Assembly (NCBI RefSeq): GCF_021246445.1
Contig: NZ_JAJQXW010000001.1
Coordinates: 1,692,168 to 1,756,167, forward strand
Origin: Rhabdothermincola salaria
GTDB taxonomy: Bacteria; Actinomycetota; Acidimicrobiia; Acidimicrobiales; Acidimicrobilacustridaceae
Reading direction: 5' to 3'
DNA: 64,000 bases
Notes under the pieces: model-generated
Told to the model about the DNA's origin: nothing
Seen by the model: the letters and a program-made list of their open reading frames with translations, nothing else
Databases searched by the model: none
Translations under genes and position numbers: made by a program
Shown: one piece after another, positions 14,201 to 21,865 of the stretch
How positions within the stretch are numbered: position 1 is the first letter of the stretch
Layout of the letters: the number at the start of each line of letters is the position of its first letter

Positions 14201-14208
14201 GGCGGCGG

Positions 14209-14282
14209 TGGAGGTGAGGAGAATCGAACTCCCGACCTCTACGTTGCGAACGTAGCGCTCTAGCCAACTGAGCTACACCCCC
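14209..14282 (-). tRNA. tRNA-Ala, anticodon CGC
   Basis: A 74-nt cloverleaf on the minus strand. The acceptor stem is GGGGGTG against CACCTCC, which gives the G3-U70 pair that identifies alanine tRNAs. The D arm is GCTCAG...CTAGAGC, the anticodon stem CTACG/CGTAG surrounds the loop TTCGCAA (anticodon CGC, reads GCG), and the T arm is TCGGGAGTTCGATTCTCCTCA-like with TTCGATT in the loop. The discriminator is A and the CCA end is not encoded. Confidence 0.95.
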
Positions 14283-16759: not shown

Positions 16760-17332
16760 TCAGGTCTCGTCGTCGAGATCGAGCCCGAGGCCGAGGTCGT
16801 CGTCGCTGCCCGACAGGCCGCCGAGGCCCTCCACACCGACGCCCGCCTCGTCGAGGGGGTCGCGCCGGTAGGTACCCGAGCGACCGCCGGTCTTCTCCCA
16901 GAGGGTGACGTCACCGATGACCATCGAGCGGTCGGCGGACTTGCACATGTCGTAGATGGTCAGCGCGGCCACGCTGCAGGCGGTGAGGGCTTCCATCTCG
17001 ACCCCGGTGCGGTCGACGGTCTCGACCTGGGCCTCGACCTCGACGTAGCGGTCCTCGATGCGGAAGTTGACGAACACCGACCCGACGAGCAGCGGGTGGC
17101 ACAGCGGGATGAGGTCCGGTGCCTTCTTGGCCGCCTGGATGCCCGCCACCCGGGCGACCGCCAGCACGTCGCCCTTGGAGACGGCGCCGCGAGCGATGAG
17201 CGACGTGGTCTCCGGTTGCATGAACACCTTGCCCCGGGCGATCGCCCGGCGGTGGGTGACCTCCTTGGGGGTGACGTCGACCATGCGAGCCCGACCCAGG
17301 GGGTCGAGGTGGGTGAGACCGCGATCGGACAT
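16760..17332 (-). CDS. moaC: Cyclic pyranopterin monophosphate synthase (MoaC)
   Basis: Completes, with MoaA, the first step of molybdenum cofactor synthesis: GTP to cyclic pyranopterin monophosphate. The conserved [13 protein letters not shown] (69-81) and [24 protein letters not shown] segment (112-135) are intact. Residues 161-190 form an extra acidic, Gly/Asp-rich tail not needed in typical MoaC. The ATG follows a -10-like TACACT by 8 nt without a ribosome site, so it probably has its own leaderless promoter although moaA lies 146 bp upstream on the same strand. The 258 bp beyond its 3' end (16502-16759) carry no gene. Confidence 0.95.
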
Positions 17333-17340
17333 GGGCGCCG

Positions 17341-17346
17341 AGTGTA
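17341..17346 (-). promoter_or_regulatory. -10 box of a leaderless moaC promoter
   Basis: TACACT on the minus strand ends 8 nt before the moaC ATG. Confidence 0.45.
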
Positions 17347-17393
17347 GGCGGCCCGCTCGTGCCCACCCCGCGTACCTGTCAGGGTTGGGCGTC

Positions 17394-17421
17394 ACCTGTC
17401 GACAGCCCGTTCCCGACAGGT
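17394..17421. repeat. Inverted repeat in the moaA-moaC spacer
   Basis: Arms ACCTGTCG/CGACAGGT (8 bp) with a 12-nt centre. Another ACCTGTC lies 13 bp away at 17374-17380. It may be a moaA 3' hairpin or a protein site. It does not fit the moco riboswitch pattern as I know it. Confidence 0.4.
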
Positions 17422-17478
17422 TTGCCGCGCAAAGGGGGGGCGGATCGGTGGGCTCGCCGCGGGTGCCTACGTCTCGGC

Positions 17479-18483
17479 TCAGCCGCCGATCTGGCTCATC
17501 GAGCGCGCCGGGCGGATGAAGTGCACCTGGTTGATCTGGTGGCCGGCCCACTTGGCCCCCACCTCCGCCCGGATGGCGTCGGCCAGGTCGTCGTCGGAGG
17601 CCCCCTCGCGCAGCAACGCCCGCAGGTCGAGCTCCCGGGTGGCGAACAGGCAGTGGCGGAGCATGCCCTCCGCTGTGAGGCGCACCCGGTCGCACGACTC
17701 GCAGAACGCCTGGGTGACGCTGGCGATGACGCCCACGTGGCCACGGCCGTCGCGGTAGCGCCAACGAGCCGCGGGGTCGGCGCCGCGCTCGGCGGCGGGG
17801 ACCTCGTCGAGGGGGTGCACGGCGTCGATGGCGGCCACGATCTCGGCCTGCGACACCACCTGGTCGTCGGTCCAGGCGCCCTGGGCGTCGAGGGGCATGA
17901 ACTCGATGAAGCGGACCTCGACGTCGTGCTCGCGCCCGTAGGTGGCGAAGTCGACGATCTCGTCGTCGTTCACCCCCCGCATGACGACGACGTTGAGCTT
18001 GACCGGTCCGAGGCCGGCTTCGTGGGCGGCGGCGATGCCGTCGAGGACCTGGGGCAGGTCGTCGCGCTTGGTGATGGCCGCGAACCGCTCGGGACGCAGC
18101 GAGTCGCACGACACGTTGATGCGTTGCAGCCCGGCGGCGGCGAGGTCGTGGGCGACGAGGCGGAGGGTGGAGCCGTTGGTGGTCAGCGAGAGGTCGACCC
18201 CGAGCGCGGCGAGCTTCTCGATCAGCACCGGCAGGTGGGCCCTCACGGTCGGCTCGCCACCGGTGAGGCGGATGCCGTCGAACCCGAAGCGCTCGACACA
18301 CACGCGGGCCACCCGGGCCAGCTCTTCGTAGGTGAGCAGCTCCTGGCGGGGCAGCCAGGGCATGCCTTCGGCCGGCATGCAATAGGTGCAGCGGTAGTTG
18401 CAGCGGTCGGTGACCGAGATGCGCAGGTCGCGGTGGACGCGCCCGTACCCGTCGACGAGGTCCGAGGGGGTGGGATCGGTCAC
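17479..18483 (-). CDS. moaA: GTP 3',8-cyclase (MoaA), radical SAM
   Basis: A radical SAM enzyme that rearranges GTP for molybdenum cofactor synthesis. The SAM cluster motif is CNYRCTYC (C28, C32, C35), the SAM-binding GGEP is at 75-78, and the C-terminal second 4Fe-4S cluster uses C261, C264 and C278. The chain ends in the functionally important double glycine (IGG). At 334 residues it has family length from GTG 18483, which follows a -10-like TACGCT by 8 nt; the longer frame upstream is rejected. Together with moaC and moeA it supports the sulfite-oxidase-like enzyme at 2.8 kb. Confidence 0.96.
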
Positions 18484-18491
18484 GGCAGCAG

Positions 18492-18497
18492 AGCGTA
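18492..18497 (-). promoter_or_regulatory. -10 box of a leaderless moaA promoter
   Basis: TACGCT on the minus strand ends 8 nt before the moaA GTG; no ribosome site is present. Confidence 0.45.
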
Positions 18498-18526
18498 TCG
18501 GCGTGCCGCCACGACCACCGGGGCGA

Positions 18527-19777
18527 TCACAGCCCGAGTGCGGCGTCGAGGAGGTGCACCGCCACCTGGTCGCCGACCTCGACGCCGGCACCGTCGGGGA
18601 GCTCGGCCAGACCTCCGGCGTTGGCCATGGCGGTCAGCTGGTGGCTGCCCTGGGCACCGGCCGACGCGACGTGCACCCGTCCGTCCGAGGTGTCCCACCG
18701 AGTCCGGACCCGGACGAAGTGGGTCTTGCCGTCCGCCTTGCGGGCCATGGCCTCGTCGGCGATGGCGACGATCTGGGGCCGGAACCGGTCGATGCCGGTG
18801 CGGCCCGCCATCTGGCGCAGCGCCGGCCGGCAGAACAGCTCGAAGCTCACCATCGACGACACGGGGTTGCCGGGCAGCCCGAAGATCGGCACGACCACGC
18901 CGTCGGCGCGCTCGACGGTGCCGAAGGCGAGGGGCTTGGCCGGCTTGATGGCCACCTGCATCCAGCGCATGGCGCCCAGGCGGTCGAGCACGACCTTCAC
19001 GAAGTCGAAGTCGCCCATGCTCACCCCGCCGCTGGTGACGAGGGCGTCGCACCGCTCGATGCCCGCCCGGATGCCGTAGGTGATCACGGCCTCGTCGTCG
19101 GGGAGCAGCCCGAGGTCGACCACCTCGAACCCCGCGGCCGCGAGCAGCGTGCGCAGCGCCAGGCGGTTGGAGTCGCGGATCTGCCCCGGGCCGAGCGGCC
19201 CGCCTCCGTCGACGAGCTCGTCGCCGGTGGAGAGCACCCCCACCACCGGGCGGCGCACCACGGGCACCTCTTGGACGCCCACGGTGGCCAGCAGGGCCAG
19301 GTGCGCGGCCCCCAGCACCGTGCCGGCCGCCACGACCTCGTCGCCGGGGCGCACGTCGTCGCCCACGGGGCGCACGTGCAGCCCCGCAGCCACCTCCGCG
19401 AGGACAGCCACTCGGTCGCCGGTGACCTCGGTGCGCTCGACCATGACCACGGCGTCGGCCCCCGGCGGCATGGGTGCGCCGGTCATGATGCGGGCGGCTC
19501 GCCCTTCGCCGACGGGAGCGTCGAGCCCGGACATGCCGGCCTGGACGGTGCCCACGATCTCGAGGTCGACCGGGTGGTCGGGTCCGGCTCCGACGGTGTC
19601 GGCGGCCCGCACCGCGAAGCCGTCCATGGCCGTGTTGGCGAACGGGGGCACCGCCTCACCGGCCACCACCGCCGCCGCCAGCACTGCGCCGTGCGCCTCG
19701 GCGACGGGGACGACGGCTTCGGGCCCGCGGGGGCACCCGCCGAACACGACGTCCCTCGCCTCGGCGAGCGAGATCAC
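18527..19777 (-). CDS. moeA: MoeA-family molybdopterin molybdotransferase or its divisome paralogue Glp
   Basis: The 416 residues show all MoeA domains: PPFANTAMDGFAVRA (domain I/II), GAPMPPGADAVVMVE, the MogA-like domain with VGVLSTGDEL, QIRDSNRLAL and TSGGVSMGDFDFVK, then GLPGNPVSS and a beta C-terminal domain. MoeA inserts molybdate into adenylylated molybdopterin. In corynebacteria a MoeA homologue next to galU (Glp) binds FtsZ instead. The same galU neighbourhood and a GlpR-like gene here leave both roles open. Its GTG overlaps the galU stop by 4 nt (GTGA), so the two are translationally coupled. Confidence 0.92.
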   Translation of the reverse strand: MISLAEARDVVFGGCPRGPEAVVPVAEAHGAVLAAAVVAGEAVPPFANTAMDGFAVRAADTVGAGPDHPVDLEIVGTVQAGMSGLDAPVGEGRAARIMTGAPMPPGADAVVMVERTEVTGDRVAVLAEVAAGLHVRPVGDDVRPGDEVVAAGTVLGAAHLALLATVGVQEVPVVRRPVVGVLSTGDELVDGGGPLGPGQIRDSNRLALRTLLAAAGFEVVDLGLLPDDEAVITYGIRAGIERCDALVTSGGVSMGDFDFVKVVLDRLGAMRWMQVAIKPAKPLAFGTVERADGVVVPIFGLPGNPVSSMVSFELFCRPALRQMAGRTGIDRFRPQIVAIADEAMARKADGKTHFVRVRTRWDTSDGRVHVASAGAQGSHQLTAMANAGGLAELPDGAGVEVGDQVAVHLLDAALGL

Positions 19778-20661
19778 CGCAGGCCGCGCTTGTCGAGCAA
19801 CTCGACGAGGAAGTCGCGGAAGTCGGGGCCGAGGTCTTCCCGTTCGAGGGCCAGCTCCACCGTGGCGCGGAGGTAGTCGAGCTTCTTGCCGATGTCGTAG
19901 CGGCCGTCGCGGAACACCCACCCGTACACCGTCTGGCTGGCGAGCAGCACGGCGATGGCATCGGTGAGCTGGATCTCGCCACCGACCCCCGGGCGCACCT
20001 GCTCGAGGGCGTCGAAGATCTCGGGGGTGAACACGTAGCGCCCCATGACCGCCAGGTTCGACGGGGCGTCCTCGGGGGCGGGCTTCTCGACGATGCCGCG
20101 CACCTGCACGAGGTCGTCGCTGATGACTTCGGGATCGACGCAGCCGTAGGCGGAGATCTCCGAGGCGGGGAACTCCGAGAGGGCGACGACCGAACGGCCG
20201 TAGTGGGCGTAGGTGTCGATCATCTCGGTGAGCACGACGCCGTCGTCGACCATGATGTCGTCGCCGAGCATCACGACGAACGGGTTGTCGCCCACGTGCT
20301 TGCGGGCGACCGACACGGCGTGGCCCAGCCCCAGTGGTTCGCCCTGGCGCACGTAGTGGATGTCGGCCATCTCGGCGAGGGCCTTCATCTCGGCCAACTC
20401 GGTCTCCTTGCCCTTCTGGGCCAGGTAGTACTCGAGCTCGAAGTTGCGATCGAAGTGGTCCTCGAGGGTGCGCTTGCCCCGGCCGGTGATGATCAAGATG
20501 TCGTCGATGCCGGCCCGGACGGCCTCCTCGACGACGTACTGGATGGCCGGCTTGTCGACGACCGGCAGCATCTCCTTGGGTTGGGCCTTGGTGGCCGGGA
20601 GGAACCGGGTCCCGAGCCCGGCGGCAGGGATCACGGCCTTGGTGACGTGCGGCGTGGCCAC
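19774..20661 (-). CDS. galU: UTP-glucose-1-phosphate uridylyltransferase (GalU)
   Basis: Makes UDP-glucose for cell-envelope glycans and trehalose. The nucleotidyltransferase signature AVIPAAGLGTRFLPATKA and KEMLPVVDKP are at the N-terminus; VMLGDDI, GVVEKP-type (RGIVEKPAPEDAPSN) and GGEIQLTDAI follow. The 295 residues equal family length. GTG 20659-20661 has GAGGAG 5 nt upstream, so the longer upstream frame is not used. It is divergent from the ruc-type gene, as in mycobacteria, where galU and Rv0991c are near neighbours. Confidence 0.96.
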   Translation of the reverse strand: MATPHVTKAVIPAAGLGTRFLPATKAQPKEMLPVVDKPAIQYVVEEAVRAGIDDILIITGRGKRTLEDHFDRNFELEYYLAQKGKETELAEMKALAEMADIHYVRQGEPLGLGHAVSVARKHVGDNPFVVMLGDDIMVDDGVVLTEMIDTYAHYGRSVVALSEFPASEISAYGCVDPEVISDDLVQVRGIVEKPAPEDAPSNLAVMGRYVFTPEIFDALEQVRPGVGGEIQLTDAIAVLLASQTVYGWVFRDGRYDIGKKLDYLRATVELALEREDLGPDFRDFLVELLDKRGLR

Positions 20662-20723: not shown

Positions 20724-20729
20724 TATGCT
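20724..20729 (+). promoter_or_regulatory. -10 box of the ruc promoter
   Basis: TATGCT overlaps the left arm of the CIRCE element by 2 bp, so a bound repressor would cover the promoter and start site. Confidence 0.55.
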
Positions 20730-20754
20730 GGCACTCGCGTTGCTCGAGTGCTAA
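20728..20754. promoter_or_regulatory. CIRCE element (HrcA operator)
   Basis: CTGGCACTC - 9 nt - GAGTGCTAA. The right arm matches the CIRCE consensus in all nine bases and the left arm in seven of nine, with the exact N9 spacer. It sits at the -10 region 27 bp before the zinc-ribbon gene, predicting repression by HrcA and induction by heat or unfolded protein. Confidence 0.85.
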
Positions 20755-20780
20755 CGATCTGGTCCCCACGGAGGACGGCG

Positions 20781-21131
20781 ATGCCCACCTACGAATACCG
20801 CTGCAAGGACTGCGGCCGACACCTCGAGGCGCAGCAGGCCTTCACCGACGACCCCCTGACCGAGTGCCCCGAGTGCGGCGGCACCCTGAAGAAGAAGTTC
20901 GGGTCGGTCGGCATCGCCTTCAAGGGCAGCGGCTTCTACAAGAACGACGCCCGCCAGACGTCGTCGAGCAGCGCGTCGAGCACCGAGTCGAGCAGCGGCG
21001 GCGCCAGCACCACCGACAGCGGCTCCACCAGCACCAGCTCCGACAGCGCCTCCAAGAGCACCAGCTCCGACAGCGCCGGCAGCACATCGGGGTCCGACTC
21101 CACCAGCTCCAGCGGGTCCAGCGCCGCCTGA
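20781..21131 (+). CDS. ruc: FmdB-type zinc-ribbon protein with Ser-rich tail (Ruc-like redox-regulated chaperone)
   Basis: The 116 residues begin with an FmdB zinc ribbon (MPTYEYRCKDCG; cysteines C8, C11, C29, C32). The conserved GSGFYKND follows and then a disordered Ser/Thr-rich tail from residue 60. This architecture matches mycobacterial Rv0991c, described as Ruc, a chaperone activated when oxidation releases zinc from the cysteines. The CIRCE element over its promoter matches the HrcA control of that gene. ATG 20781 has GGAGG 7 nt upstream. Other FmdB-family proteins have unrelated or unknown roles, so function rests on architecture, regulation and galU synteny. Confidence 0.82.
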   Translation: MPTYEYRCKDCGRHLEAQQAFTDDPLTECPECGGTLKKKFGSVGIAFKGSGFYKNDARQTSSSSASSTESSSGGASTTDSGSTSTSSDSASKSTSSDSAGSTSGSDSTSSSGSSAA

Positions 21132-21141
21132 CACGGCGCCC

Positions 21142-21771
21142 TCAGGGCACCGCCCCCACCAGCGCCAGCACGACGGCGCCGTCGAGCACGGCCCGACCCA
21201 CCGCGGGCGCCGCCGAGGCATCGACCGCCACGGTGACGGTGAGCGCGTCGACGGCGAGCACCTCGGCACCCCGCGCCACCCGCCGGGCCCCGGTGGTGGA
21301 CCCCACCTCCGGCGCCAGCACGTCGACGCGGTCGCCGATCTGCAGGACGAGCGACCGGTCGTCGACGGGGACGGCCAGGGCCCGCTGGCCGGGCTCGAGC
21401 CGGGCGGCCGGGCCGGTGCCCCACCCGGCCAGGCGGGCATCGAGCACGACCTCTCCGGCCACGATCGCGTCACCGACCGCCCGGCCGAGGGGGTCCTCGG
21501 CCACCCCCTCGGGCACCATCACCTCGGGGAGGGCTCGGATCTCGACGTCGGCCGGGCCCACGACGTCGCCCACCGCCAGGGACCGCAGCGCCACCGGCAC
21601 CTCGCGCAGGGTGCCGTACGCCGCCCGGGCGGCGTCGGCCCGCGCCACGGCCCCGGCGGCGAGGGCGCCGGCGACGAGCGCGGCGACGACGGTGGCCGCC
21701 CAGCGGATCAGCGGCCGGCGTCGGCCCCGCCGGACGCGACGACGGTCGGGCCCGGCCAAGTGGGTTCCCAC
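21142..21771 (-). CDS. SAF-domain membrane protein (CpaB-like)
   Basis: A 209-residue protein with a basic N-terminus (GPDRRRVRRGRRR), one membrane helix (about 24-44) and an extracytoplasmic SAF domain (LAVGDVVGPADVEIRALPEVMVPEG, then VVLDARLAGW). A beta-rich C-terminal part with LEPGQRALAVPVD and LQIGDRVDVLAP follows. CpaB proteins with this layout belong to Flp/Tad pili, but no tad gene is nearby, and isolated SAF proteins of unknown role are frequent in actinobacteria. GTG 21769-21771 has GGAGG 6 nt upstream; a longer in-frame extension to 21864 lacks support. It converges on ruc. Confidence 0.75.
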   Translation of the reverse strand: MGTHLAGPDRRRVRRGRRRPLIRWAATVVAALVAGALAAGAVARADAARAAYGTLREVPVALRSLAVGDVVGPADVEIRALPEVMVPEGVAEDPLGRAVGDAIVAGEVVLDARLAGWGTGPAARLEPGQRALAVPVDDRSLVLQIGDRVDVLAPEVGSTTGARRVARGAEVLAVDALTVTVAVDASAAPAVGRAVLDGAVVLALVGAVP

Positions 21772-21865
21772 GGTGGTCCTCCGAGACGACGAGGCACAGG
21801 TGGGGGAAGTGGGCCCGAGCCTAGGGGGCACCCGACGCCGGCGAAAGGGCCCGATCGGGGTCAAC

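What the first reader, a model, noticed from the sequence alone, without database searches (positions are those of the whole stretch)
20724..21131. Ruc-like redox chaperone under a CIRCE element, divergent from galU
The zinc ribbon plus Ser-rich disordered tail matches mycobacterial Rv0991c (Ruc). A CIRCE element with 16 of 18 consensus arm bases and the exact N9 spacer overlaps its -10. Conservation of gene, operator and galU neighbourhood outside mycobacteria would show an old heat/oxidation circuit.
Basis: partly seen in the sequence, partly recalled or inferred. Interest (0 to 1): 0.66.

Follow-up and report, generated by a model that had tools for sequence, protein, structure and literature searches.

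The report
Heat-repressor-controlled redox chaperone gene, Acidimicrobiia
A small zinc-binding protein that resembles a tuberculosis chaperone switched on by oxidation sits behind the same heat-shock repressor site as the cell's main chaperones, and this wiring recurs in many Actinomycetota, so it is probably an old part of their stress response.

Summary
Window 20781-21131 (+) encodes a 116-aa FmdB/Zn-ribbon protein (TIGR02605, PF09723, above cut-offs) with Cys8/11/29/32 and a Ser-rich tail, the Ruc (Rv0991c) layout. A CIRCE with 16 of 18 arm bases and N9 lies at 20728-20754 and overlaps a TATGCT -10. The genome has hrcA and four CIRCE places at up to 3 mismatches: two at groES-groEL, one at a second groEL, one here. 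Becker 2020 reports the same kind of HrcA target set for M. tuberculosis, so the circuit is known there. The survey adds its spread: a CIRCE (up to 4 mismatches) precedes ruc in 48 of 110 sampled Acidimicrobiia loci (24 of 41 families), with named cases in Streptomyces, Micromonospora, Pseudonocardiales, Mycobacteriales and Solirubrobacterales; controls give 0-1. A SigH/SigR-type promoter, GGAAT-N18-GTT, accompanies CIRCE in Streptomyces- and mycobacteria-like loci, stands alone in one Acidimicrobiia family, and is absent here. So this ruc probably has heat derepression at the promoter and oxidation sensing in the protein only. galU is a frequent neighbour, not the constant partner. HrcA binding and chaperone activity are inferred. 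New member of a known kind.

The parts
20724..20729 (+). -10-like hexamer TATGCT of the ruc promoter (sigma-A type, inferred)
   Evidence: a TA...T hexamer at one of two neighbouring offsets to CIRCE in 42 of 49 Acidimicrobiia CIRCE-ruc promoters, this one included
20728..20754 (+). CIRCE operator, 16 of 18 consensus arm bases, N9 spacer
20781..21131 (+). ruc homologue: FmdB-family zinc ribbon with Ser-rich tail, 116 aa
19774..20661 (-). galU, divergent neighbour (UTP-glucose-1-phosphate uridylyltransferase); start chosen by eye
21142..21774 (-). SAF/CpaB-like gene, convergent downstream neighbour (start uncertain); not part of the circuit
   Evidence: SAF 22.8 bits, cut-off 21; pilus_cpaB 51.8 bits, below its cut-off of 71

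Best explanation
The gene is an orthologue of mycobacterial ruc. In unstressed cells HrcA binds the CIRCE that overlaps the -10 and blocks transcription, as it presumably does at groES-groEL and the second groEL (sites shown; binding inferred). Protein-damaging heat titrates or inactivates HrcA and ruc is derepressed together with the chaperonins (inferred from HrcA biology). The protein holds one zinc with Cys8/11/29/32 and is idle while reduced; oxidation would release zinc, link cysteines and let the Ser-rich tail help hold unfolded proteins for DnaK (inferred from M. tuberculosis Ruc). Unlike the M. tuberculosis promoter, this one has no SigH-type element, so amount is set by heat and activity by oxidation. 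The CIRCE-ruc link is probably ancestral in the Actinomycetota lineages that share the galU-ruc neighbourhood and was lost several times.
For: Family hits above cut-offs; cysteine numbers as in the published Ruc mutants; CIRCE beyond chance; hrcA present; other CIRCE sites at groES-groEL and groEL (read by eye). Survey: CIRCE up to 4 mismatches before ruc in 48 of 110 Acidimicrobiia loci and 26 of 82 other loci of the phylum; reversed arms, gaps 8, 10 and 11, in-gene and far-upstream controls 0 in both sets, gap 7 gives 1 of 110 and 0 of 82. Named hits in Streptomyces, Micromonospora, Amycolatopsis, Tsukamurella, Conexibacter and others. Another genome, G656 (its ruc contig is titled Acidimicrobiales), has three CIRCE places at up to 2 mismatches: groES-groEL, groEL and ruc. 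-10 overlap in 42 of 49. Shared galU neighbourhood in Acidimicrobiia, Pseudonocardiales and Mycobacteriales, and an unnamed family outside the class, f64. M. tuberculosis precedent (passages).
Against: 62 of 110 Acidimicrobiia loci have no CIRCE at 4 mismatches or fewer, and a strict composite pattern finds it in only 22 of 396 genomes of the phylum, so it is patchy and repeated gain is not excluded. The threshold of 4 was set after seeing the two-humped distribution. In 36 of 110 loci the third Cys is His, so the four-Cys switch is not universal in the family. Genome-wide, the reversed pattern at 3 mismatches also has 1-3 hits in many class genomes, so single 3-mismatch sites elsewhere are not safe evidence. 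No transcript, binding or chaperone data for this organism were available to me. Foldseek found no match at E <= 0.001.
Confidence: 0.75

Rival explanations
1. The protein is an HrcA-controlled zinc-ribbon protein with another job (for example a regulatory or RNA/protein-binding partner), not a holdase.
For: A member is annotated as 'putative regulatory protein, FmdB family' (passage seen); Foldseek's weak matches are mostly MCM N-terminal domains and an RNA polymerase subunit.
Against: The one member whose tests I saw, M. tuberculosis Ruc, is an oxidation-activated holdase whose tail is needed for activity; the same cysteines and a disordered-looking tail are kept here; its operator is of the kind found at the chaperonin genes.
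Confidence: 0.17
2. The CIRCE serves galU, or both divergent genes.
For: Only 119 bp separate the galU and ruc starts, and the site lies between them.
Against: In 31 of 48 CIRCE-bearing Acidimicrobiia loci the galU motif is over 400 bp off or not found within the 1.5 kb or less of upstream sequence held; in L246 plsY lies between; yet the site stays 12-145 bp before ruc and the conserved -10 points to ruc.
Confidence: 0.05
3. CIRCE at ruc was gained independently in several lineages, so there is no ancestral circuit.
For: Patchy distribution: 24 of 41 sampled Acidimicrobiia families, 22 of 396 genomes of the phylum with the strict pattern, 1 of 301 genomes, the seed itself, in the phylum of a Dehalococcoidia hit.
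Against: The site occurs in the same galU-ruc neighbourhood in Acidimicrobiia, Pseudonocardiales, Mycobacteriales and the unnamed family f64 outside the class, which fits descent better than repeated gain.
Confidence: 0.25
4. The CIRCE is a chance match.
For: Two arm bases differ from consensus.
Against: 0 in 100 shuffles, genome-wide reversed control 0 in this genome, and the site is kept in 5 of 5 other sampled loci of the same family f1 at 2-4 mismatches.
Confidence: 0.01

Closest known systems
Ruc (Rv0991c) of Mycobacterium tuberculosis, Becker et al. 2020 (PMC7448276; passages read)
   Same: Zinc ribbon with Cys8/11/29/32, hydrophilic disordered tail, HrcA control, coregulation with Hsp60/Hsp10 genes.
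   Different: No SigH-type promoter here; a sigma-A-like -10 instead; class Acidimicrobiia; activity untested.
HrcA-CIRCE regulon
   Same: Consensus TTAGCACTC-N9-GAGTGCTAA (recalled), hrcA in the genome, chaperonin genes as the other targets.
   Different: In the papers I saw, ruc is named as a target only for M. tuberculosis; the hrcA-dnaJ region of this genome has no CIRCE at 3 mismatches or fewer.
SigH-type ECF promoters, GGAAYR-N17-GTT (PMC4803200; passages read); SigR as the Streptomyces counterpart is recalled
   Same: Found at exactly this spacing before ruc in the sampled f73 (Streptomyces-like) and f78 (mycobacteria-like) loci and in 9 of 11 loci of Acidimicrobiia family f34, which lack CIRCE.
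   Different: Absent from the window's ruc promoter.
Hsp33
   Same: Working principle: zinc-bound and idle when reduced, holdase when oxidised (from PMC7448276).
   Different: No sequence relation, according to the same paper.

Membership tests
Ruc / FmdB zinc-ribbon family (TIGR02605, PF09723) | Profile match over curated cut-off | tested here: met
   TIGR02605 71.3 vs 31.3 bits; PF09723 59.1 vs 34.4 bits
Ruc | Two CxxC pairs 17 residues apart | tested here: met
   Cys 8, 11, 29, 32; published layout
Ruc | Hydrophilic, disordered C-terminal tail | tested here: met
   30 Ser in the last 58 residues; AlphaFold pLDDT 92-94 for residues 1-40, 52-63 in the blocks beyond; prediction only
Ruc | Oxidation-activated holdase that works with DnaK | not testable with these tools
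   needs protein
HrcA regulon | CIRCE in the promoter region | tested here: met
   2 mismatches of 18, N9, on the -10
HrcA regulon | hrcA in the same genome | tested here: met
   163.4 bits, cut-off 22.2
HrcA regulon | HrcA binds the site and the gene rises in an hrcA mutant | not testable with these tools
   needs experiment
SigH/SigR regulon | GGAAY-N17..19-GTT promoter | tested here: not met
   none with N18 in the window, either strand; none with N17-19 in the 200 bp before ruc

The most novel reading that the evidence does not exclude
The ruc promoter is an ancestral two-input node of Actinomycetota: HrcA repression (heat) and a SigH/SigR-type ECF promoter (heat and thiol oxidation). Lineages have since divided the inputs. 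Mycobacteria-like and Streptomyces-like families keep both, most CIRCE-bearing Acidimicrobiia (45 of 48 sampled loci, and this genome) keep HrcA without the ECF element, and one Acidimicrobiia family (f34) dropped CIRCE for the ECF promoter.
Probability: 0.45. Interest if true: 0.55.

Novelty: new member of a known kind. Interest (0 to 1): 0.42.

Why it matters
It moves an HrcA target known from one pathogen to a feature found in many Actinomycetota, which argues that Ruc belongs to the core proteostasis set beside GroES/GroEL. The lineages with only one of the two promoter inputs, and those with a Cys-to-His zinc ribbon, are natural tests of which stress Ruc answers and which cysteines its switch needs.

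Tried and rejected
Chance match: rejected. CIRCE for galU: judged unlikely. CIRCE-ruc as a pan-bacterial link: the strict pattern found 1 of 301 genomes in the phylum of the Dehalococcoidia hit, the seed itself, so outside Actinomycetota it looks sporadic. Conserved -35: none seen in the Acidimicrobiia promoter profile. Solved-structure relatives by sequence: none better than E 0.14; fold search, none at E <= 0.001. Family-level association of CIRCE with galU: not significant, p = 0.18 (by locus p = 1e-8, but loci are not independent). A tree of the short protein was not attempted.

Full report
Observation. The stretch 20724-21131 holds what was described. TATGCT lies at 20724-20729, a CIRCE with 16 of 18 arm bases and an N9 spacer at 20728-20754, and an ATG-TGA frame of 116 aa at 20781-21131. 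The pattern at up to 3 mismatches occurs once in the window and in none of 100 shuffles. The two off-consensus bases are the first and third of the left arm; the first lies in the CT that the site shares with the -10.

What the gene is. TIGR02605 (71.3 bits, cut-off 31.3) and PF09723 (59.1, cut-off 34.4) both pass. The four cysteines are at 8, 11, 29 and 32, the same numbers as the C8S,C11S and C29S,C32S mutants of M. tuberculosis Ruc, and 30 of the last 58 residues are Ser. In an alignment of 41 sequences, the window's included, M1, P2, Y4, Y6, C8, Q19, C32, G49, S50, G51 and D56 are invariant. The model is confident for residues 1-40 (pLDDT 92-94) and low beyond (52-63), as expected for a ribbon with a disordered tail; fold search gave no match at E <= 0.001.

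Regulon in this genome. hrcA is present and is followed by a DnaJ-like frame (read by eye). At up to 3 mismatches there are four CIRCE places: a tandem pair before groES-groEL, one before a second groEL, and this one; the reversed pattern gives none (groES and groEL read by eye). Becker et al. 2020 state that M. [quoted passage not shown] The target set is therefore of the same make-up.

Survey, Acidimicrobiia. TIGR02605 matches 205 of 296 genomes of the class at E <= 0.001, 188 over the cut-off. In 110 loci sampled from them, the best CIRCE in the 200 bp before ruc has 4 mismatches or fewer in 48, 5-6 in 2 and 7-10 in 60; reversed arms, gaps of 8, 10 and 11, the first 200 bp from the start codon and a far-upstream window (108 loci) give 0 at that threshold, gap 7 gives 1. 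The threshold was chosen after seeing the gap in the distribution. The 48 loci fall in 24 of 41 families and 41 of 77 genera. At whole-genome scale 259 of 296 class genomes have some CIRCE at up to 3 mismatches, but the reversed pattern also has 1-3 hits in many of them, so that tally alone proves little.

Survey, rest of the phylum. Of 82 loci, 26 have CIRCE at 4 mismatches or fewer, all seven controls 0 (far upstream on 79 loci); one of the 26 (L178, AT-rich, 4 mismatches) is doubtful. The strict CIRCE-plus-start pattern finds 22 of 396 genomes, reversed control 0; it is a lower bound because it asks for exact bases. In the Dehalococcoidia genome (G654) the other CIRCE places at up to 2 mismatches precede hrcA-grpE-dnaK and groES-groEL; in the Eremiobacterota MAG (G655) they precede groES-groEL and an Hsp20 gene. 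Mis-binning of these MAG contigs was not tested. The strict pattern finds 1 of 301 genomes, the seed itself, in the phylum of G654.

Neighbourhood. Of the 48 CIRCE-bearing Acidimicrobiia loci, the galU motif is divergent within 400 bp of the ruc start in 17, at 400-1500 bp in 21 and not found in 10; some loci hold less than 1.5 kb upstream, so the 10 may include contig ends. In L246 the gene between is plsY on the galU strand (L071 and L100 look the same by eye); in the Pseudonocardiales locus L232 it is a 5-formyltetrahydrofolate cyclo-ligase on the ruc strand, and L237 (Tsukamurella) and L159 carry a similar frame by eye. The partner that stays is ruc.

Promoter. In 42 of 49 Acidimicrobiia CIRCE promoters (48 plus the window) a TA...T hexamer ends on the first or second base of the CIRCE. 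The offsets were chosen after seeing the profile, but T and A are rare in these GC-rich flanks. A repressor on this site would block the -10.

Second input. GGAAT-N18-GTT, the spacing of the SigH consensus GGAAYR-N17-GTT (passages), occurs before ruc in 13 of 110 class loci (11 of them without CIRCE, 9 of these in family f34, where 11 loci were sampled), in 12 of 82 other loci (all with CIRCE: f73 8 of 8, f78 4 of 4) and in 17 of 80 named loci; all other spacings from 12 to 25 together give 1, 3 and 2 loci, and reversed or far-upstream sequence gives 0. I noticed the element when reading the promoters, so the first sighting was not blind; the spacing test is the control. In PMC4803200 Rv0991c is listed at 40.3 +/- 12.2 in the section on SigH-dependent transcription. 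The window has no such element.

Mechanism, shown and inferred. Shown: gene, operator, -10-like overlap, hrcA, conservation. Inferred: HrcA repression, heat derepression, zinc release and holdase action on oxidation. The most likely reading is that heat sets the amount of protein and oxidation its activity.

Prior work. In the library held, no paper has both FmdB and HrcA, CIRCE and FmdB, SigR and FmdB, or zinc ribbon, HrcA and Streptomyces. Subscription journals and regulon databases were not searched, so an earlier report of CIRCE at ruc outside mycobacteria is possible. Becker et al. report broad Ruc distribution and linkage to chaperone genes and hrcA in other phyla (passages); the word CIRCE does not occur in that main text, and the passages I saw treat HrcA control of ruc for M. 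tuberculosis only.

Noticed in passing
L037, L048, L074, L089, L096, L099, L101, L106, L113 (family f34): ruc without CIRCE at 4 mismatches or fewer but with GGAAT-N18-GTT, in 9 of 11 sampled loci of one Acidimicrobiia family.
   Followed up: partly
L113, 26 bp before the ruc start: A symmetric TTGGCAGTC-N9-GACTGCCAG (5 mismatches from CIRCE) beside a GGAAT-N18-GTT element: perhaps a decaying or altered CIRCE.
   Followed up: no
class loci, third Cys of Ruc: His in place of the third zinc-ribbon Cys in 36 of 110 class loci, 16 of them with CIRCE; a natural variant of the redox switch.
   Followed up: partly
L223 and L258: CIRCE before ruc in a Dehalococcoidia and an Eremiobacterota MAG, with other CIRCE sites at hrcA-grpE-dnaK and groES-groEL, and at groES-groEL and Hsp20.
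   Followed up: partly
G000 (whole genome): TIGR02605 has a second, weaker match in the window's own genome that the listing did not show; not examined.
   Followed up: no
window 21142-21774; L232 458-1087 after the ruc start: A SAF/CpaB-like gene lies next to ruc in both, in opposite orientations.
   Followed up: no
window about 16900-19900 (-): moeA and, by eye, moaA- and moaC-like frames beyond galU; galU next to moeA1 is also the M. tuberculosis order as I recall it.
   Followed up: no
G000:C1:491800-495600 (L325): The hrcA-dnaJ region of the genome has no CIRCE at 3 mismatches or fewer, so hrcA is apparently not autoregulated this way.
   Followed up: no
window 14207-14282 (-): tRNA-Ala (CGC), the only RNA gene found in the window.
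   Followed up: no
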